64,000 nucleotides of DNA, taken from Cyanodermella asteris (Eukaryota > Ascomycota > Lecanoromycetes > Ostropales > Stictidaceae). How positions within the stretch are numbered: the first letter of the stretch is position 1; every line of letters starts with the position of its first letter. The notes below the pieces were generated by a model that saw only the letters and a program-made list of their open reading frames with translations, ran no database searches and had not been told where the DNA came from. A program made the translations under genes and the position numbers. Of this stretch, positions 39,807 to 50,695 are shown piece after piece. The stretch is from assembly GCA_900618795.1 (NCBI GenBank), contig UYJD01000010.1, positions 1,249,956 through 1,313,955 on the forward strand, read 5' to 3'.

Positions 39807-42353
39807 TTACCAGCTCGTTGCGCCATCACCAACCTTGAAAAGCCCGTTCTTCCGCTTCTCCTGGTCCCACTTCTCGATCCAACCCTTCATTCGCTCCCTG
39901 CTCTTGGCACTTCCAATGTTCACCGTTGGGATGATTTTGTCTATCCTCAACGCACAACAAAACATGGTCAACTCCCTGAAACTGCTGTGCTCGCTGTACG
40001 GTACCCCGAAACAGCTTGCCTCACGAGTACTTCCCCTCTGAGGCACAAGCTCGTGCATGGTGTATCTGCTTTTCCAATTCTCGGAGTGTAGAACAGTCTG
40101 CACCAATGGACTCTCGGTGAACCTGCTGTTTGGTGGACGATAATTCCAGCCACTCGGCCTGAATCCAACGATGCGAGAAAAATGAGGTTTGTAGGACGTC
40201 AAATAGTCTGCTAAAGTTTCGGCGCGGATCTCCATCAGCATCTGCATGTGCACCTGTGCTTCGAGAGGATCGTTGGTCAAGCGCGCTGTCAGCTCCGGAT
40301 CTTCCAGCGCTGCACAAATTCGCTGTTTTCCAGAAGATGCGTAGATCTTGCTGTTCAGTGCCTTTGCAATGCCCAGGCACACTCGTTCTTTGCCGATACT
40401 ATAGGTTCCGATGATAACAAGGAGCCGGCCTCGTCCTTTCTTGCCACTTGTCTTGGTCTCTTCGGCAAGCGTATTGCCATCTTCGTCCTGTGTGGCGCTT
40501 CGCACAAACTTGGCCATCCCGGTCCCTGCGCGCTCCCGCTTCGTTCGTTCCCATGAATCGGATTCGTCGACTTGATCCTTACTCAAGCTGATGCACATGT
40601 CTGCACAGGCCTGTATGACCTCTTGTTGGAGTGGGAAAGAGTACTTCGGCGTCAGGTATGTCGTGTCAAGATAGCAGACATCCAGTTTCTGCTCGCGCTT
40701 CTTTCCACCCACAACATCGACAACATCTGGACGAAGAAGAGGGTGTTGAACATGAGCGGGACAAGCTCGGAAGTCCCCGCAGTGCAGCACTCGTTGGACA
40801 CGATTCTTGCCGAGGACCTTCTCGTACAGGAACAGGGAGCTTCCAGGACAATGATTTGCCGAGATCATGGTAACGTAAACGCCTTTCGTGTTCGGAACCT
40901 CGACCTTCTTCTCGAATTCCAGCGGTACGACATATTTCGCATCAACCCGTAGTTGCTGCCTGACGAGATTCGCAGTGACCTTGCTGCAGTAGATTGGCCC
41001 GTGGCACCAAGAAGACGTAAGACCAATGTAGTGATCGCTGTGAAAATGGCTCAGGAAGTACGCATTGCAGCCTTGAACCGCACCATATCGGAAGGCGTCG
41101 ACACATATTGAGAATCCAGGCAATATCTTGTAGAATGGGCACGTCCTTTTGAAGGCAGGCTTGCCTCTGGATGCCACTTCGTTCGCGGCCGCTGTCGCCC
41201 ATGCCGCATCCTCCGCATGATTTGACATCAGTTTCGTGAAAGCGGAACCACTCGAGTCCTCTCTACCGAGAGTGAAAGGATTTTGTTGGCCGGGTCTGGC
41301 AATGGAAGCTTTCGTGAAGCGCTTCGCCGGCATTGGCAGCTCGGATTTGACGTTTGCGGGCTGTATCAGAGGCTTCGGTAGAGGCTTGGGCCGTCCGTCG
41401 AGGCAGTTGTTGACATGAGTAGATGCTTGTTCAGCTGTGATGCCCGCTAATGAGACGTTGCACAGCGGACAAGGCGGTGTATCTGAGTCCAGAGCACATT
41501 CCTCACGAGCTCGGAGGGCTTCGTCCTTCGCATCCTCACTTTGCTCAATCCCATCATCCTGCTCCTCCAATCGTCTTTGCTCCTCCGCGAACCGCCGTTC
41601 TAAGAATTCTTCGCCCATTTCTTCTAACATGTCGTCGTCAATCATGTCGTCAAAATCTTCTATATCATCATCGTACATTGCACTGGTCGCGTGCTCCATC
41701 AGTGCGGGTGGCCCAGATGTATCAGCGTCCTCTTTCGGATCTCTCGCCACACCTTCGTGCTCGTCATCCTCGGTTTTCACGGGGACCTCATCCTGCGGCG
41801 ATTCCCGACCAGATTCGTGACTCTCGATAGATTCATCCTCCTCCTGCTTGACCGACAATGCTGGGCTGAGTGTTCGACCCAGCAACTTCTTTGCTGTCTT
41901 CCTCTTCTTGACTGGCCCACCATCTTCATTGAACCTGGACACGTCTTGTGACTGGGTACGAGTGTTCGTCGGTGGCGACTGGTCTCGAGGTGGAGTTGGA
42001 ACATGGCTCTCGAAGCTCTCCTCTGGGTATGGGTCGACGGGGTCTCGAAAGAACAGTGCATCTTCATTCTGTGACCCTCGCTCGGCTTTCTTGAAGAAGC
42101 TCAAGATGCTGCTGTTTCCTTTCGAAGCAAGTCCGGTCGTTTTGACTTTGGCCTTTGGCGTGGATATCCTGCGAGTTGCGTTACCGCCTGCAAGAGGCAA
42201 CTTGTCCCCGAACGCCATGCTTGCTTGTCGAGCTGCTCTCGGTGGCGACTGATCATGAGTGGCGGACCTCGACTCCGGAGAGGGAGGTCGACCGAGCAAT
42301 TGTTTGCTCGGCAGCTCACCTCCATCATCTGCCACACGCGGCTTGCGGAACAT
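39807..42353 (-). CDS. PSO2: DNA cross-link repair nuclease Pso2/Snm1
   Basis: 848 aa from the ATG at 42353 (MFRKPRVADDGG); a GTG three codons upstream is not the start. The disordered N-terminus is followed by a UBZ4-type finger (CPLCNVSLAGI...HVNNC, about residue 300), a ubiquitin-binding module that guides the protein to stalled forks. The metallo-beta-lactamase/beta-CASP nuclease follows, with LSHFHSDHYIGL (the HxHxDH metal motif), ANHCPGSS, HCGDFRA and LDTTYL. The DRMBL C-terminal region ends with VPYSEHSSFREL. Pso2/Snm1 trims DNA around interstrand cross-links. All metal ligands are present, so it should be active. An acidic stretch (DDDIEDFDDMIDDDMLEE) lies just before the finger. Intronless; full length for filamentous fungi. 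Confidence 0.93.
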   Translation of the reverse strand: MFRKPRVADDGGELPSKQLLGRPPSPESRSATHDQSPPRAARQASMAFGDKLPLAGGNATRRISTPKAKVKTTGLASKGNSSILSFFKKAERGSQNEDALFFRDPVDPYPEESFESHVPTPPRDQSPPTNTRTQSQDVSRFNEDGGPVKKRKTAKKLLGRTLSPALSVKQEEDESIESHESGRESPQDEVPVKTEDDEHEGVARDPKEDADTSGPPALMEHATSAMYDDDIEDFDDMIDDDMLEEMGEEFLERRFAEEQRRLEEQDDGIEQSEDAKDEALRAREECALDSDTPPCPLCNVSLAGITAEQASTHVNNCLDGRPKPLPKPLIQPANVKSELPMPAKRFTKASIARPGQQNPFTLGREDSSGSAFTKLMSNHAEDAAWATAAANEVASRGKPAFKRTCPFYKILPGFSICVDAFRYGAVQGCNAYFLSHFHSDHYIGLTSSWCHGPIYCSKVTANLVRQQLRVDAKYVVPLEFEKKVEVPNTKGVYVTMISANHCPGSSLFLYEKVLGKNRVQRVLHCGDFRACPAHVQHPLLRPDVVDVVGGKKREQKLDVCYLDTTYLTPKYSFPLQQEVIQACADMCISLSKDQVDESDSWERTKRERAGTGMAKFVRSATQDEDGNTLAEETKTSGKKGRGRLLVIIGTYSIGKERVCLGIAKALNSKIYASSGKQRICAALEDPELTARLTNDPLEAQVHMQMLMEIRAETLADYLTSYKPHFSRIVGFRPSGWNYRPPNSRFTESPLVQTVLHSENWKSRYTMHELVPQRGSTREASCFGVPYSEHSSFRELTMFCCALRIDKIIPTVNIGSAKSRERMKGWIEKWDQEKRKNGLFKVGDGATSW

Positions 42354-42858
42354 TATCAACACGAGACTCCACTAGTGCCCGCCTGTCGTCGGACAAGAGA
42401 ACGGGTATGGACCTGGCGCTTGACTGTGCAGCAAGACTGGCATCCTTGGCTGCAGCCGAGGTCTTGACAAGGCGGTTCGTCATTCTGCGTCAGGGAACAT
42501 GAACGGCATGAATTACATCGAGTCGTTATCATCCTCCGGTTGTTCCACTAGCGTTTCCCATGTTCCCCTCACTAGGTCTATGTGTCGACCAGCCACTGGA
42601 TACAAAGGACCGGGATGTGACCAAACATCCATGTTAACTTGTGTGACGACCCGGACACTCTTGCATTGCACAAGAGATGACACGAGTTTCTTTAATGTCA
42701 TGGCGTGTTGCCCCATGCTTCCGTTGCTCCGCTACCTCCTCTCCTATGTACGAATATCCGGAACGATTCCGCATAGTCCGTTCGAGTGATTCTGTCTGCT
42801 ACCTTTGCATTCGGCCACTTGCTATCCTTGTTGAACCTTTTGTCTCTGAATTCCCGTT
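42354..42858. other. Divergent promoter region (PSO2 / BVMO)
   Basis: About 500 bases between divergent start codons. No gene supported; short frames only. Confidence 0.4.
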
Positions 42859-44782
42859 ATGACGGGCCCAGTACCATGGCTGCAGGCTCGGGCAAGCAAC
42901 TCCGAGTTCACCAAATCGGCGGTGACCATCATCGGGGCGGGCATGTCAGGCATGTGCCTTGCAATCGATCTGCTCAATCGAGGCATCACGAACTTCGTCA
43001 TACTCGAGAAGAGTGCCGGAGTTGGTGGGACTTGGAGAGATAACAAGTATCCTGGTTGTGCCTGTGACGGTGAGTACTCGAGTAATCCAAGTGCACGTGG
43101 ATGCGACGGCTGGGTTAATGGAGTATCGGCCTGGGTGGTCGCACAAGTCAAATGTCTGACCTTCAGCAGTTTGGTCCGCGCTGTACTCCTACTCATTCGC
43201 CCAAAAGTCGACGTGGTCAAGGTTATACCCCGGCCAGGAAGAAATTCTGGTAAGATAGCTGACACTTCCCGCACTTGACGCCCTTGTCTCTGCTGCTCAT
43301 GCTCGTTAGTCCTACCTTGTGGAAGTGGCATCAAAGTACAACTTGTATCAATACATTCGATCCAACACTACTGTCGAAAATGCGTCATGGGACCAAGCAA
43401 CGGCGAAATGGCAGACCTCAGTGCGAGTCAGCGGTGAGAAAGATGCGGAATACAACAAAGCATACACTATCGAGTCAGACTTTCTCATTTCAGCAGTCGG
43501 CCAGCTCAATCAACCAAGCTGGCCAACTATTCCTGGGCTGGACACGTTCGCCGGCAAAATCATGCATAGTGCGAGGTGGGACTGGAGCTACGATCTCACT
43601 GATAAGAAGATCGCCGTTATCGGAAATGGTGCGACGGCCGTCCAAATCGTCCCGGAGCTGGCCAAGGTCGCGAGGAAACTCACGATTTTTCAACGAACAC
43701 CAAACTGGGTTACGTACAGGCTCGACCGGCCCGTGCCAGGCGTTGTGCAGTCCCTGTTCAAGTGGTTTCCGCCGTCGCAATGGCTAGCGAGGTCTCTGAT
43801 GATGGATGCTCGCGAGGGCTTCTACGACGCAGTGGCTCATGAAGGAGGCGAGATGTCCACAATGATCCGGAACCAGTGTCTAGAAGCGATAGAGAAGAAC
43901 TTTCCTGGGGAGAAGAATGCGGCCATACGTGATGCACTCATCCCAAAATACTCACCATTGTGCAAACGAGTCATTATCTCGGATGATTTTTACCCCACGC
44001 TAGCGCGAGACAATGTTGTTCTTGAGACGCGCTCCATCCAAGGCATCACAGAGACAGGCATTGAATTGGCGGATGGTGGAGGGCTCGAGCATGTTGACCT
44101 GATAATATGCGCGACCGGTTTCAAAACATTGCAGTTCTTCCATCCCATTCAGATTACAGGAGAAGGCGGAAGGACGTTGGACGACGTCTGGACTGACGGT
44201 GCACAAGCACTCTATGGTGCGTAAACTCAGCTCTTTCCCTGACTTCTACTGACTTCAATAGGCATGATGGTCGAATCGATGCCAAATTTCGGCTGCCTTT
44301 ACGGTCCGAACACTAACCTTGGCCACAGCAGCATCGTCCTCATGATCGAGCAGCAAACACGCTACCTCAACACTCTCATCGAAAAAGTGCTCACCACTCG
44401 ATCAGCCGGAAACAAGATGTTCAAGTTGATACCGAAGCGAGAACGAATCGAAGCCCACAACGCAGCTTTGCAAGAAAAGCTGAAGACTACTGTGTTTGCG
44501 GATCCGAGCTGCAACTCCTGGTACAAGACTGCAGATGGTAAGATCACCAACAACTGGTCTGACTCCGTAGTGGCGTATCAAAAAATGCTCTCAACCGTGG
44601 ACTGGTCGGACTTTGATGATGAAGAACAAATCACGGTCAAGAAAACTAAAGAGTATATTGGTCGGGTCAGAGAGGAGAGCTTGATCAGCGTGAGCCAGCT
44701 GAAGACGTTGGGAATTGTAGGAGCTCTGGCCGGGGCAGCAGCCATTGCAGCCAAAAAACTTCCAGCGCACTTGCGGCTCTGA
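42859..44782 (+). CDS. Type I Baeyer-Villiger monooxygenase (FAD/NADPH flavoprotein)
   Basis: Four exons: 42859-43069, 43170-43249, 43310-44216 and 44262-44782, giving about 572 aa. The FAD fold is [13 protein letters not shown]; the BVMO fingerprint FxGxxxHxxxW is exact ([11 protein letters not shown]); the NADPH fold is [16 protein letters not shown] and [12 protein letters not shown] follow. Such enzymes insert oxygen next to a carbonyl, giving esters or lactones; the substrate cannot be told. The first intron ends in CAGCAG, and using the second AG gives [14 protein letters not shown], which lines up best with the family (CDVPSHLYSYSF). The last 35 residues include a hydrophobic helix ([18 protein letters not shown]), possibly a membrane anchor. 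Its 3' end overlaps the broken P450 on the other strand by 98 bases, suggesting they were once partners in one pathway. Confidence 0.9.
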
Positions 44783-46124
44783 GACCACACAGTGTTGCAA
44801 TGCATTGCCGAGCCCCAATGCCGAAGGCCATATTGTCACGGTGCATGTCGGCATTCGCGGCCAACCAGCGCTCGGGCGCAAATTTCTGAGCATCTGCAAA
44901 CACGTCTTCGTTCCAGTGAAGCTGATAAGAACCAACACCTACGCTTGTACCAGCAGGAAACGTGAATCCCTTCCATTCCCAGCCCTCGGGCGGCACGATC
45001 CGAGGTAGCCGGGTGGGATTGGCAAGAGAGACCCGCAAGCCTTCGAGCACCACCGCTTTGAGATACGGAAGGCTTTATATCCGTGACTTATCCCTAGTGA
45101 ACTCGTCCCTGCTCCTGGCTTCCGTAACTTCTTTGCCAGGATCTGATCTTTGCAGGCACGGATAGCACGGCAATGAATTTAGCGACGCTCTGTTGGCATC
45201 TTGCCCGCAATCCCGCCTGCTACGGACGTCTGAGAATTGCTGCTCAACCTCGTGCTGGCTAAAGCCTGCCTCGAGCAGCTTCATCTGGTAGGTGCTGGCT
45301 TTGCCATCCTGGCGTTCGATGCTTGCTGCACAGTCTTGAACAAGTTTATGCGCATAAGCATCAACCTTTCCCAGTGACTCTGCTCCGCCGTCATCGAGAA
45401 ACAAACTCTCGCATACCCACTCAACCCGGTCGAACAGCCACTTTGGCAAGTAAAAGAAGCGGCCAAAGGAGACAAAGAAGTCGACAAATCGAGAAGCCGA
45501 CAGCTGCTCCGATTCCTCTTCCAGTCCCCCGTACCGCACCCCAAATAGATACTCGGACAGACTGTCCAACGCAAAGCATCTGGCCAAGTTCAGCACATTG
45601 ACCGGCCGACCCGATGCCGCTCCCTTTCGAAGCCGTTCAACAAAAACGTCTGCCGAGGCGTGAATCGAGTTACTGTTGGGGTATATGCTACCAGGAGCAA
45701 ACATATTGATCACTGCCCGCGCACGTGGCTTTCTGTACTCAGGGTCCAGAGCCGAGAAAATTGTAGGATGCCCCTGAATGTCGAAATTCGAATATCCAGG
45801 ATGCTTCAAGAACCCGCCCTTTTCTGCGTAGATTGGGTGTAATGCTGCGCCATCTGCGATGTCAACTTCGTTTGGACCAACGCGTACGATTGCGCCATAC
45901 GCCTGATGCACCTTCCAGACGATGGAAGCCTCGTCGCCCTTCCAGGCGTGGAACCAGAGCCAAAGCGGTGTCACACAGGCAAGGAACGGGCCTGGTACTG
46001 ACGATAGGGGATGCAAAAATCTTCTGTGAATACATACGGCACAGATCCATAGCAGAAGCGGTAAGACAATGGACGGTGTCAAGCTCCCCATGTCTGAGGA
46101 CGACAAAAGATACCCTAACGCCAT
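44685..46124 (-). pseudogene. Cytochrome P450 disrupted by an internal 103-bp inversion
   Basis: Starts at an ATG (46124) with a membrane anchor (SIVLPLLLWICAVCIHRRF) and the P450 segments VPGPFLA, GPNEVDIAD and FDIQGHPTIFSALDPEYRKPRARAV. The minus frame then runs to HEVEQQ. The I-helix DLIFAGTDSTAMNLATLCWH is encoded on the plus strand at 45143-45202, inside an inverted block (45134-45236). After it the minus frame resumes with KEVTEARSRDEF, a stop (TAA at 45075-45077), and LPYLKAVVLEGLRVSLANPTR (K-helix), FAPERW and FGIGARQC (heme-Cys loop). Past the Cys the sequence no longer resembles a P450 and is antisense to the BVMO. The type recalls pisatin-demethylase-like fungal P450s. It cannot make an active enzyme as it stands. 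Confidence 0.85.
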
Positions 46125-46764
46125 AATGGGCAGGGCGTCAATCGCAGATACAGAACAAGAATTCGATATCTACGCAAGATGGTCAAGCATCATGTGAGGC
46201 CGACGAGAAGACGAAGAATGTGAATGGGATAGTAAGACAGTGATCACGGGCTGAAGATGGCGCTTCGATCATGTGGGTCGAATAAGCAAAGCCTAATTGG
46301 TGAACCGCATGTACGAGAAGTATCATGGCAAGAAACTGCAAGTTGTGGGCACGCTCTGAGACGTCGTCTAGGAACATTTGTGCTCAATTCTGCGAAGATC
46401 GAGGCTCTCTCAAGCTCATTATTGGGACCGTTAGCAGTCTTAGAAGCATACCACCAATCAGACAAATTGCAATGTTCAGGCCAAGCTTGCTCACAACCAG
46501 CATCCGCCAAACGGCACAACGTCGGTCAAGTTGTATCCGCCACATTGACGTCACACATCGCCAGCCGGCCACAGCTTCAAGGCGGGCCTGAATCTTTGAG
46601 TACGACTCTTTCCCGTCAAGTCAGCCTCACCGGCACTCTTTGTCAAGCTCGTGACCAATCTTCTACAACCCGGCATCAATACCTGTATTGCGATCCGCTC
46701 TTCGTGTCCCATCCGTTGCATATTCCAGCCATCCAGGCTCAGTTCGAGCATCAAACGCTCAATC
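46125..46764. other. Divergent intergenic region (P450 / kelch)
   Basis: About 640 bases between divergent starts. A frame on the plus strand (46257-46796) has no ATG context or domain and is rejected. Probably promoters. Confidence 0.4.
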
Positions 46765-48069
46765 ATGGCAGAGGTTGCAGGAGCCTACGCTGCTGAGCAC
46801 GTCGTCGAAAGCGCCGGCGCCGCTGCGTACGGTGTCGCTAGAAGCACAATGCCAATTCGAGGGCGATGGACGCCCCTTGCACCCGAGCTTCCACTACCCC
46901 GTTCCTCACACAGCTTGTGTGTAATCCGAGGAAAAGCATACATCTTCGGTGGCGAGATTGAGCCCCGAGTTCCCGTCGACAATGACGTCCATATCTACAC
47001 GTTACCGTCAGGGATCGTGGAGTCGACAGACTACACCAGCGTCAAGCCGGATGGCGCTCCCTCGCCGCGAGTGGGTCATACCGCGGCATCGATTGGCCGG
47101 TGGATGTACGTCTTTGGTGGGCGAGGTGGAAAGGATATGAAGCCATTGGAGGAAAATGGTCGCGTCTGGTGTTTTGATACTCAAGACAACAGTTGGACGT
47201 ACCTTGATCCGACTGAAGGACCTTTCCCAGAAGCTCGATCGTACCACGCGTCGGCGGCCACTGAACATCCTTTGCCATCGCGGACCAAGACGGAACAGAA
47301 CCCAGCAGCCGCATCACTAGATCGCCATGGTACAGTCTTCATTCACGGAGGATGCCCTGCTTCAGGTCGCGCTGCAGATGTCTGGGGTTTCGACATCGCA
47401 GCTCGAGTATGGCGACAGTTTCCAGACGCGCCTGGTGCACCCCGAGGAGGTCCTGCACTCGCCTGCTCCGACAAGCGCTTATTCCGATATGGAGGCTTTG
47501 ACGGTAAGAGCCAGATTGGAGGACAAATGGACTACCTCGTGTTGGGAAAAGAAACGTTCGTGGACCAGTCCGGCGTCGCCGAGGCAGGCGTAGTACCTCA
47601 CCCGCGAGCCGGAGAATGGCAAAGCATCAAGATCGATGGCTCAGAAGGCAAGCATCCAGGTGCACGAAGCGTGGCAGGCATGCACCACGTTACCACCGGA
47701 CAAGGACGCAACTATCTAATCCTGTTGCTCGGCGAGAGGAATCCCAGCAACAAAGGCCATGAAGGTGCCGGGGAGTTTTGGGACGATGTATGGACGTTCC
47801 AGTTGAAGCCCGATGGGATGACGGCGGCGAGCTTCAAGGATGCCACGCGGTATCTTATTGGGATGAAGACAAGAGAGTACGATTGGGATGAGGTGGTGGT
47901 ACCCGAAGCCACGATGAGCGCAGGCCGCGCTGCGATGCCAGGCGCGCGTGGCTGGTTTGCCTCCAGCAGTGCAGGCGATTTGGACAAATCGAGTGTCGTT
48001 CTGTGGGGCGGCATCAACAGTAATAATGAAAGGTTGGGAGATGAGTTCATTTTGACACTGGATTCGTGA
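46765..48069 (+). CDS. Kelch-repeat beta-propeller protein
   Basis: 434 aa from the ATG at 46765 (MAEVAGAYAAEHV). The frame continues upstream to a GTG, but that part has no family character. Kelch blades are visible as repeated hydrophobic-GG units: LPRSSHSLCVIRGKAYIFGG, PSPRVGHTAASIGRWMYVFGG, GTVFIHGG, RRLFRYGG-like, and later NYLILLLGE and SVVLWGG, about six in all. This makes a galactose-oxidase/kelch-type propeller with no added enzymatic domain and no signal peptide. Such proteins act as scaffolds; the partner is unknown. Intronless. Its 3' end is followed about 35 bases later by a perfect 8-bp inverted repeat. Confidence 0.8.
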   Translation: MAEVAGAYAAEHVVESAGAAAYGVARSTMPIRGRWTPLAPELPLPRSSHSLCVIRGKAYIFGGEIEPRVPVDNDVHIYTLPSGIVESTDYTSVKPDGAPSPRVGHTAASIGRWMYVFGGRGGKDMKPLEENGRVWCFDTQDNSWTYLDPTEGPFPEARSYHASAATEHPLPSRTKTEQNPAAASLDRHGTVFIHGGCPASGRAADVWGFDIAARVWRQFPDAPGAPRGGPALACSDKRLFRYGGFDGKSQIGGQMDYLVLGKETFVDQSGVAEAGVVPHPRAGEWQSIKIDGSEGKHPGARSVAGMHHVTTGQGRNYLILLLGERNPSNKGHEGAGEFWDDVWTFQLKPDGMTAASFKDATRYLIGMKTREYDWDEVVVPEATMSAGRAAMPGARGWFASSSAGDLDKSSVVLWGGINSNNERLGDEFILTLDS

Positions 48070-48104
48070 TTGAACGACTCACTCATGCAACCGGAGGCAC
48101 GTTG

Positions 48105-48126
48105 TGCGTACGTTCTGCCGTACGCA
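48105..48126. other. Perfect inverted repeat just downstream of the kelch gene
   Basis: tgcgtacg (48105-48112) and cgtacgca (48119-48126) are exact reverse complements around a 6-base loop, about 36 bases after the kelch stop codon. It could form a hairpin in the 3' UTR RNA. No function is known. Confidence 0.6.
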
Positions 48127-48358
48127 TATTCAACGAAGGCGTCTTGAGGATGTGACCTGCTCGAATTGAACTCTTGCTCTATTGTGTTCTATAGCGGTAC
48201 TGAAAAGCGTCCTGTGATCAATCTCTATCACCAACTCGCATGGCTTGCCTGAACACGCGACGAGGAGGTGCCTCATCTTGGTGAAGATTGCAACTATGCT
48301 GTGATCCCGTGGTGTCTTCATTGACAGCCAAACAGATTCGATGTCCATATCAGAACTT

Positions 48359-49759
48359 TCATGTCGTGAGTATCTTCTTCAGGCGTTCGACCTGGGCCAA
48401 CACAGCGCTCCTGCTCGTTCCACCCTCGGCATCCTTCAGCTCCACAGCACGTTCGTAGTCCATGCACTCGACGATGTCAGCTTCCAGCTTCGAGTCAACG
48501 GACTGCCATTGCTCAGGTGTGAACTTGTCCATCGTCGTGTCCTCGTTCTCGGCCAAGGCAACACACCTTCCAGACACATGATGAGCCTCACGGAACGGAA
48601 TACCCTTGCGGACAAGGTAGTCGGCAATTTCAGTCGCGAGCATGTCCGGGGTCAAGGCAGCCAGCATCTTCTTGGGGTTCACCTTCAAGGTACTCAAGAC
48701 GCCTGTTGCAATCTGCAAAGAGTCGCCGACAGTCTTGACGTGATCGAGCAGGGGCTCAACGCTCTCTTGTAAGTCCTTGTTGTATGTCGTTGGAAGGCCC
48801 TTGATCGTACAGTACAGACCAGCCATCTGACCGAAAGCTCGGCCAGCCTTGCCTCTGAGAAGCTCAAGACTGTCTGCGTTCTTCTTCTGCGGCATCAATG
48901 ATGAACCGGTCGAGTAAGCGTCGCCAAGGGTGACGAAGCCGAACTCCAGCGACGAGTAGATGATCAAGTCCTCCGCCCATCGGCTGATCTTCAGCATGAC
49001 CGTGCTGCCCCATTGGAGGGTCTCGAAGACAAAGTCACGATCGCCGACTGCCTGCAACGAATTCGGTAGCACACCATCGAAACCAAGCTCCTTTGCGATG
49101 GCTTGACGATCAATCTTGAATGGGTTGCCTGCCAGAGCACCACTTCCCAGAGGGCTCTGATTCACCCGCTTCTTGACTTCGCGGACTCTGTCCAACTCGT
49201 TGGCAAGACCTGTGGCATGAGACAACAACCAGTGGCTCCATCTGATCGGCTGAGCCTTCTGCAAATGAGTGTACCCAGGCATCAAATACTCTATGTCCTG
49301 CTGCGCCCTCGCGGTAAAAACCCTAAGCAAGTCAACAAGATATCCCTCCAGCTTCGTCAACTCATCCCGCAACCACATCCTCATGTCTGTCGTAACCTGA
49401 TCGTTCCTGCTGCGACCCGTGTGCAGCTTGCCAGCAACACCCTTGCCAATAATCTCACCCAGCCGGCGTTCATTCGCCGTGTGAATGTCCTCATCATTGG
49501 CCTGCGGTACGAAAGTGCCGTCCTCCCATTCCTTGCCGACTGCCTTCAGACCCTTTTCGATCTGGAGGAACTCGTCCTGCGTCAGGACGCCGGTCTTGAC
49601 ATTGGCGCGCGCGAAGGCGATTGAGCCGAGAATGTCTTGCTTCCAGAAGATGCGGTCGTAGGGGAGCGATTCGTTGTATTTTACCATTAGAGGGTCCAGA
49701 CCGGTGGTGAATCGTCCGCCCCAAAGCATGTTTGCTGCTGGTGCTTTGCCGTCCGCCAT
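48359..49759 (-). CDS. ARG4: Argininosuccinate lyase
   Basis: 466 aa from the ATG at 49759 (MADGKAPAANMLWGGRFT), intronless. The superfamily signature GSSLMPQKKNAD is near residue 285; upstream are HTGRSRNDQV and YTHLQKAQPIRWSHW, which form the active site. The enzyme splits argininosuccinate into arginine and fumarate, the last step of arginine synthesis, and is also part of the urea cycle. Fungal enzymes are cytosolic and no targeting signal is seen. Length matches (yeast Arg4 is 463 aa). All catalytic blocks are intact. It converges on the kelch gene, with a 290-base gap between stop codons. Confidence 0.96.
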   Translation of the reverse strand: MADGKAPAANMLWGGRFTTGLDPLMVKYNESLPYDRIFWKQDILGSIAFARANVKTGVLTQDEFLQIEKGLKAVGKEWEDGTFVPQANDEDIHTANERRLGEIIGKGVAGKLHTGRSRNDQVTTDMRMWLRDELTKLEGYLVDLLRVFTARAQQDIEYLMPGYTHLQKAQPIRWSHWLLSHATGLANELDRVREVKKRVNQSPLGSGALAGNPFKIDRQAIAKELGFDGVLPNSLQAVGDRDFVFETLQWGSTVMLKISRWAEDLIIYSSLEFGFVTLGDAYSTGSSLMPQKKNADSLELLRGKAGRAFGQMAGLYCTIKGLPTTYNKDLQESVEPLLDHVKTVGDSLQIATGVLSTLKVNPKKMLAALTPDMLATEIADYLVRKGIPFREAHHVSGRCVALAENEDTTMDKFTPEQWQSVDSKLEADIVECMDYERAVELKDAEGGTSRSAVLAQVERLKKILTT

Positions 49760-50695
49760 GTTGCTGTCGGAGCAATTGATAGGCCCTGAGCGATACTGAG
49801 ATTGAGACTTGAATATCAGTGCTACTGGTGATGACGCAATATGTGCTAAGCTGGCTCAACTTTGGGGGGTACTATGTGTTGCGATGGTTTGGGCCACTTG
49901 AGTAGGTGGTTGGTGGTTTTCCGTCCGTGCAGTAATAACCTTCTCACCAACAACTGCGGGCGCTTTAGGCGTTTCGTAATACACAGCAGTTTATGGTCTT
50001 GTCGAGAGGTTCGCTTGACTGAAGCTCTTTGACAATGTAAAGACAATTCACAAGTCAGCTCGTTCAGAGGCAAATATCAATTAGCCAGAAAAAAAAAAGT
50101 GTATCTTATCTTCGGAGCAGCTCCGAGCATCGGCCATTCCGGTGCGCTTGAGGCGCTTCTTTCACGAACATACGACGCTATCTTGACGACCGGATTTATT
50201 TGCAACAACAGGAAACGGATGCATCACAGTATCACTCATATGCCACCAGTATAAGAACATCGTATTCGCACCCACTGTGTCCTCCTTGAGCCAGGAGATT
50301 TCCAATTGACCCCCAGAGCTTTTGAGCTCTCGCAGCGCTGCTCCTCGACATTGTCAAATCCATCCTCTTGCCCAGAAACAAACCAAGGTAGCCTCAACCA
50401 GCTTTTGCTGAGATGGCAGTCTTTCGACCAAATGTCTGAACCTGTGCGCGCTCAGCGCCATGTCCGACCAGATTTAACCCAAAGCCAAACCACGCATAAC
50501 CCATGCTCGTCATCGTCCATGAACCAACGTTGTGATCATTAACAGCTATTGTCAGATGACCGAAGCCCCATGCAAGAATATGAGACCACTGGTGTGGTCA
50601 GATTCAATATCGTGCGAATCCATTCATTGTCTCATTCACAGTAAATCGTCGTTGCCGTCTTCGGAGTTTACGAATCGCCCCTTGGACCAGACATC
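49760..50695. other. Intergenic region between ARG4 and bZIP genes
   Basis: About 935 bases. The left part is the ARG4 promoter; no TGACTC (Gcn4/Cpc1) site was clearly picked out by eye. The right part is the bZIP 3' flank. An A-run is at 50090-50100. No gene is supported. Confidence 0.4.

What the first reader, a model, noticed from the sequence alone, without database searches (positions are those of the whole stretch)
45134..45236. A 103-bp inversion inside a cytochrome P450 puts its I-helix on the other strand
The P450 reads on the minus strand up to HEVEQQ and again from KEVTEARSRDEF, but the I-helix (DLIFAGTDST..., with the oxygen-binding AGTDST) is encoded on the plus strand. Flipping exactly 45134-45236 rejoins EVEQQ to CQDLIFAG and RLR to KEV with no base lost or gained and no frame change. 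The event therefore looks recent and precise rather than ordinary decay, with no mobile element at the ends. It could be a fixed lesion, a strain polymorphism or even a reversible switch; the sequence cannot tell.
Basis: partly seen in the sequence, partly recalled or inferred. Interest (0 to 1): 0.9.

Follow-up and report, generated by a model that had tools for sequence, protein, structure and literature searches.

The report
Broken fungal P450 with flipped segment
A fungal cytochrome P450 gene carries a roughly 100-base piece in reversed orientation, but the same gene also has an early stop and seems to lack its tail, so it looks like an ordinary dead gene with one unusually tidy lesion rather than a genetic switch.

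Summary
A P450 gene lies on the minus strand of what reads as a fungal window, and its I-helix segment (QDLIFAGTDST...) is readable only on the plus strand, 45137-45235, where the minus-strand gene lacks it. Among 53,029 overlapping open 33-codon windows in six frames, this block is the only strong P450-like stretch outside the gene's own minus-strand frame. Spacing to the neighbouring pieces fits distant relatives: exact upstream, 2-4 codons long downstream. An in-place inversion of about 101-103 bp is the best reading. The ends cannot be fixed to the base: the outermost pair is self-complementary and no close homologue was found.

The gene also has an in-frame stop at 45077-45075, and its homology ends just after the haem cysteine with no recognisable tail. 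Neither orientation of the block yields a complete P450, so a switch is very unlikely. No inverted repeats beyond chance lie at the ends. Likeliest: a one-off microinversion, by break misjoining or short template switching, in a decaying gene. Assembly error, fixation and polymorphism could not be tested. New member of a known kind; low to moderate interest.

The parts
45237..46124 (-). N-terminal piece of the P450, from the start (hydrophobic N-terminus by eye) to just before the I-helix; 296 codons without a stop
   Evidence: translation; Pfam p450 E 1.7e-8, profile 7-234
45134..45236 (+). inverted block carrying the I-helix (AGTDST); 45135-45235 equally possible
45078..45133 (-). short segment after the block (EVTEARSRDEF...), back on the gene's own strand and in its frame
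   Evidence: no profile support on its own (C1, -2.8 bits)
45075..45077 (-). in-frame stop codon, a second lesion
44796..45074 (-). K-helix (EGLR) to haem-binding loop (FGIGARQC); P450 homology ends about 44796
   Evidence: Pfam p450 E 1.5e-21, profile 321-412; PDB P450s, best E 5e-11
44783..44795 (.). where the P450 tail would continue; a plus-strand ORF ends at 44782. Probable third lesion (truncation)
42859..44782 (+). neighbouring flavin monooxygenase (Baeyer-Villiger type) gene in several exons, convergent with the P450; its last ORF 44264-44782 is assigned by position and by eye only
   Evidence: NAD_binding_8 on 42859-43044 and FMO-like E 2.1e-16 on 43319-44224; PDB Baeyer-Villiger enzymes, best E 3.3e-30, for 43319-44221; no flavin-enzyme match for the last ORF

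Best explanation
A cytochrome P450 gene in a fungal chromosome has become a pseudogene. One lesion is an in-place microinversion of about 101-103 bp that put the I-helix codons on the other strand, probably by a one-off repair or replication accident (two breaks rejoined with the middle piece reversed, or a short template switch) with 0-1 bp of homology. An in-frame stop and, very probably, loss of the C-terminal tail are further lesions. Shown: the segment is on the opposite strand, single in the window, correctly placed, and the gene has a stop besides. Inferred: that it arose by inversion, the repair route, the order of the lesions, the loss of the tail, the fungal origin, and that the assembly is right.
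For: Order and strand of the pieces on Pfam p450. The block is the only strong P450-like window outside the gene's own frame among 53,029. Upstream spacing: Ser or Thr 14 residues before the I-helix A-G position in 10 of 10 usable relatives, Glu 11 before it in 8 of 10; the window has both at those distances (Glu counted, Ser by eye). Downstream: 49 codons in the window against 45 in 7 of 10 and 47 in 3 of 10 relatives; 20 codons where Pfam leaves 19 positions (my count). Stop. No recognisable tail: minus-strand windows below the haem site reach 0.3 bits, and none of 10 stop-free stretches in 44200-44830 matches p450 in Pfam (10 of 13 such stretches of 30 or more codons listed). No inverted repeat at the ends: longest perfect arm within 12 bases is 4 nt, reached by 74% of 3,000 random pairs of positions 102 apart; symmetric run 2 nt, reached by 73% of 5,000; 1-4 nt when the centre is shifted by up to 6.
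Against: The block scores below Pfam's cut-off on its own and an unrelated chain beats it in the PDB search. No close fungal homologue was found, so ends and native spacing rest on distant bacterial P450s, and the downstream spacing is 2-4 codons longer than in those. The tail's absence is less sure than the rest: one of 10 relatives' tails (L001) scores only 1.5 bits against a profile without it, so a divergent tail could be missed. The human-chimpanzee microinversions of PMC8755829 are 17-33 nt and all flanked by inverted repeats; this one is longer and lacks them.
Confidence: 0.82

Rival explanations
1. Assembly or sequencing artefact: the block is in native orientation in the organism and was reversed in the assembly.
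For: No reads or second assembly could be examined. [quoted passage not shown]
Against: No repeat of 20 nt or more at the ends and no inverted repeat above chance there. The same passage holds inversions shorter than a sequencing read to be safer. The stop is a separate defect in the same gene, so a pseudogene is likely anyway.
Confidence: 0.07
2. Reversible or programmed inversion acting as a switch for the P450.
For: The minus-strand frame stays open through the block as it stands (ORF 45075-46124).
Against: An open frame of that length arises in 25% of shuffles of the block. No inverted repeats at the ends above chance. The stop, and the tail that was not found, mean that no orientation gives a full enzyme. 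No recombinase or transposase family among 20 ORFs scanned (13 of 20 matched some family, 7 matched none; other ORFs of the window were not scanned, apart from the pieces).
Confidence: 0.01
3. The plus-strand block is not an inversion but a fragment of another P450 inserted in reverse while the native piece was lost, for example by conversion from a paralogue.
For: Not excluded: paralogues elsewhere in the genome could not be searched.
Against: Needs loss and gain of matching size at one place; the upstream spacing is exact against 10 relatives. No other P450-like stretch in this window.
Confidence: 0.05
4. The I-helix resemblance on the plus strand is chance.
For: Weak stand-alone scores.
Against: Best-scoring stretch outside the gene's own frame among 53,029 windows, and it lies at the gap. 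Codon usage leans the same way (plus frame 0.04 bits per codon, minus in-frame reading -0.15), but this is weak, since stretches of the N piece range from -0.27 to 0.29.
Confidence: 0.01

Closest known systems
Microinversions between human and chimpanzee (Potapova et al. 2022, PMC8755829; abstract and first part of the discussion read)
   Same: Short segment replaced in place by its reverse complement, mostly without other change
   Different: Theirs are 17-33 nt and all flanked by inverted repeats; this is about 101-103 bp, with no flanking repeat above chance, inside a former coding region
Avian microinversions (Braun et al. 2011, author name recalled; PMC3123225; passages read)
   Same: Same kind of event; the paper would use the word for inversions up to 50 kb in most vertebrate genomes
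   Different: Theirs are 5-38 bp and in non-coding DNA; the passages also cite mammal sets whose smallest are 23 and 31 bp, so longer ones are known
Short-range template-switch mutations in great apes (Walker et al. 2021, PMC7954356; passages read)
   Same: Copying of the opposite strand over short distances; fragment length up to 128, 5.5% of events without net length change
   Different: Median fragment 12 nt; here no ancestral sequence is at hand to fit the model
Cytochrome P450 (Pfam PF00067) pseudogene
   Same: P450 body with EGLR and FGIGARQC motifs
   Different: The loss includes an inverted I-helix segment besides a stop and a probable truncation

Membership tests
Cytochrome P450 (PF00067) | Profile match above curated cut-off | tested here: met
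   N piece 34.1 bits and piece after the stop 77.2 bits against 22.8
Cytochrome P450 (PF00067) | K-helix ExxR and haem loop with Cys (motifs recalled) | tested here: met
   EGLR and FGIGARQC in P0003
Cytochrome P450 (PF00067) | I-helix oxygen-binding motif in the gene's own frame | tested here: not met
   Present only on the plus strand
Cytochrome P450 (PF00067) | C-terminal region after the haem Cys | tested here: not met
   51-68 residues in 10 of 10 usable relatives; not recognised here by the 10-sequence profile or by Pfam in 10 stop-free stretches. A strongly divergent tail could be missed
Microinversion | Segment is the reverse complement of the ancestral segment, in place | tested here: inconclusive
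   Placement and spacing fit; no close homologue to compare
Microinversion | Inverted repeats flanking the segment (as in the set of PMC8755829; not needed by the wider definition) | tested here: not met
Programmed invertible switch | Inverted recombination sites at both ends | tested here: not met
Programmed invertible switch | At least one orientation gives a complete product | tested here: not met
   stop lies outside the block; tail not found
Programmed invertible switch | Both orientations present in a population | not testable with these tools
   no reads and no genome held

The most novel reading that the evidence does not exclude
An inversion of about 100 bp that arose without flanking inverted repeats is segregating among strains of this fungus and was the first hit that killed the P450, showing that clean, repeat-free inversions of this size are a real route of gene loss in fungi.
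Probability: 0.12. Interest if true: 0.35.

Novelty: new member of a known kind. Interest (0 to 1): 0.25.

Why it matters
If real, it is a clear example of a short inversion that gene predictors would misread as a divergent exon or an intron. It is longer than the two microinversion sets whose sizes I saw (17-33 nt and 5-38 bp), though longer ones are known, and it lacks the flanking repeats that one of those sets always shows, so it bears on how such events arise. It says little about the biology of the P450, which is broken in other ways too.

Tried and rejected
Relatives: viral contigs with the N piece and the piece after the stop, genome contigs with both, each by six short peptide patterns: no relative confirmed. 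Only distant bacterial and archaeal plasmid P450s came up (44 records, all under 60% identity, 40 listed); I chose and fetched 12, all bacterial. Two are not in the final profile: L008 (P450 split in two annotated ORFs; never used) and L012 (my script took a wrong reading frame). L012 was in the first profile and in the left-out controls; the scan was repeated without it, with the same outcome. L002 carries no annotation; its P450 was taken as the longest ORF over the match.

Repeat or hairpin basis: the repeat finder on 44950-45420 gave repeats of 8-18 nt, none with both arms at the two ends; a DNA fold of 45034-45336 is somewhat more stable than shuffles (z -2.19; 3 of 100 shuffles fold as well), not enough for a mechanism. 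The bacterial promoter/terminator scan found nothing and is not made for fungi. NCBIfam gave four distant bacterial P450-type models for the piece after the stop, nothing for the other two. PDB search of the N piece gave nothing at E 0.001 and only weak hits up to E 10 (15, best P450 3A5 at 0.026, one of the 15 not a P450).

Literature: seven searches (one search returned nothing). No listed title or abstract start reports such an inversion in a fungal P450; apart from the three papers named I saw listings only.

A structure prediction was considered and not run: without close homologues it would not fix the ends.

Full report
What is there. The window reads as fungal (inference): Pfam finds an integral peroxisomal membrane peroxin, an exocyst Sec10 subunit, a DUF3425 protein, argininosuccinate lyase and a DNA-repair metallo-beta-lactamase, and the flavin monooxygenase gene beside the P450 is split into exons (by eye). 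The species was not identified and no genome is held. The P450 lies on the minus strand between 46124 and about 44796.

The observation. From the start, 296 codons are open, ending in SQHEVEQQ at 45237. The I-helix follows on the plus strand, 45137-45235. The gene then returns to the minus strand in its own frame. Pfam p450 orders the pieces as 7-234, 269-300 and 321-412. On its own the block is weak evidence (Pfam E 0.038, under the cut-off; PDB P450 E 1.6 behind an unrelated hit at 0.34; no NCBIfam match). Its placement convinces. With a profile from 10 bacterial P450s, 53,029 overlapping stop-free 33-codon windows of all six frames were searched. The best plus-strand window is 45140-45238 (rank 52, 10.2 bits) and the block window 45137-45235 has rank 54 (10.1 bits); all 51 above rank 52 are the gene's own minus-strand 44700-45080. 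The best window starting outside 44600-46200 scores 3.6 bits, and minus-strand windows over the block reach -1.6. For comparison the gene's own N piece reaches 6.9 bits, and I-helix segments of the 10 usable relatives score 7.1 to 33.9 bits against profiles made without them (those profiles still held the wrong sequence L012).

Precision. In 10 of 10 usable relatives a Ser or Thr stands 14 residues before the I-helix A-G position, and in 8 of 10 a Glu stands 11 before it. The window has both at the same distances (Glu counted; Ser by eye). Downstream, the distance from that position to the LPYL motif is 49 codons against 45 (7 of 10) or 47 (3 of 10) in the relatives; against Pfam it is 20 codons for 19 positions (my count). 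So nothing sizeable was lost or gained at the joins, but exactness to the base is not shown. Bases 45134 and 45236 are complementary, so the inversion may equally be 45135-45235.

More than one lesion. An in-frame stop lies at 45077-45075 on the minus strand, outside the block. P450 homology ends two to three residues after the haem cysteine, at about 44796, and a plus-strand ORF ends at 44782. Relatives have 51-68 residues after that cysteine (10 of 10). Minus-strand windows below the haem site score at most 0.3 bits, while tail segments of the relatives score 1.5 to 43.1 bits against profiles without them, 9 of 10 at 7.0 or more. Pfam finds no p450 in 10 stop-free stretches of 44200-44830 (7 minus, 3 plus), nor in the plus-strand ORF 44264-44782. 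A divergent tail cannot be fully excluded, but the stop alone already breaks the gene in either orientation of the block.

The neighbour. The convergent gene is a Baeyer-Villiger-type flavin monooxygenase by its middle exon (best PDB E 3.3e-30; Pfam FMO-like E 2.1e-16). Its last ORF, 44264-44782, has no flavin-enzyme match in Pfam or the PDB and is assigned by position and by eye, so that the truncated P450 abuts this gene's end is likely but not shown.

Mechanism. No inverted repeats at the ends above chance: longest perfect arm within 12 bases is 4 nt, reached by 74% of 3,000 random pairs of positions 102 apart; symmetric arm 2 nt, reached by 73% of 5,000; 1-4 nt when the centre is shifted by up to 6 bases. 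Repeats of 20 nt or more within 40000-50000 do not touch the ends and no tandem array lies near. This fits a chance accident with 0-1 bp of homology, by misjoined breaks or short template switching, and speaks against a site-specific recombinase. That the frame stays open through the reversed block is expected in 25% of shuffles. One published set of microinversions is 17-33 nt and always flanked by inverted repeats (PMC8755829; abstract and first part of the discussion); another is 5-38 bp, in non-coding DNA, and its passages mention mammal sets that start at 23 and 31 bp (PMC3123225); template-switch fragments up to 128 nt are reported (PMC7954356, passages).

Verdict. Observation confirmed; inversion well supported; 'recent, precise, not ordinary decay' and 'switch' not supported. 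The order of the lesions, fixation in the species, and the correctness of the assembly remain open.

Noticed in passing
44780-44804: P450 homology stops just after the haem cysteine, about 13 bases from the end of a plus-strand ORF at 44782 that probably is the last exon of the convergent flavin monooxygenase: perhaps a deletion that joined the two gene ends.
   Followed up: partly
   Followed up: yes
42859-44782, plus strand: Baeyer-Villiger-type flavin monooxygenase in several exons beside the dead P450 (middle exon E 3.3e-30 to PDB enzymes); its last ORF matches no flavin enzyme in Pfam or the PDB.
   Followed up: partly
45034-45336: The stretch around the inverted block folds somewhat better than shuffles as single-stranded DNA (z -2.19), in part by a 7-base arm pair (45113-45119 with 45135-45141) that straddles the left end.
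   Followed up: partly
L008, 584-1932 (Synechococcus sp. PCC 7502 plasmid): A plasmid P450 annotated as two adjacent ORFs, possibly a broken gene.
   Followed up: no
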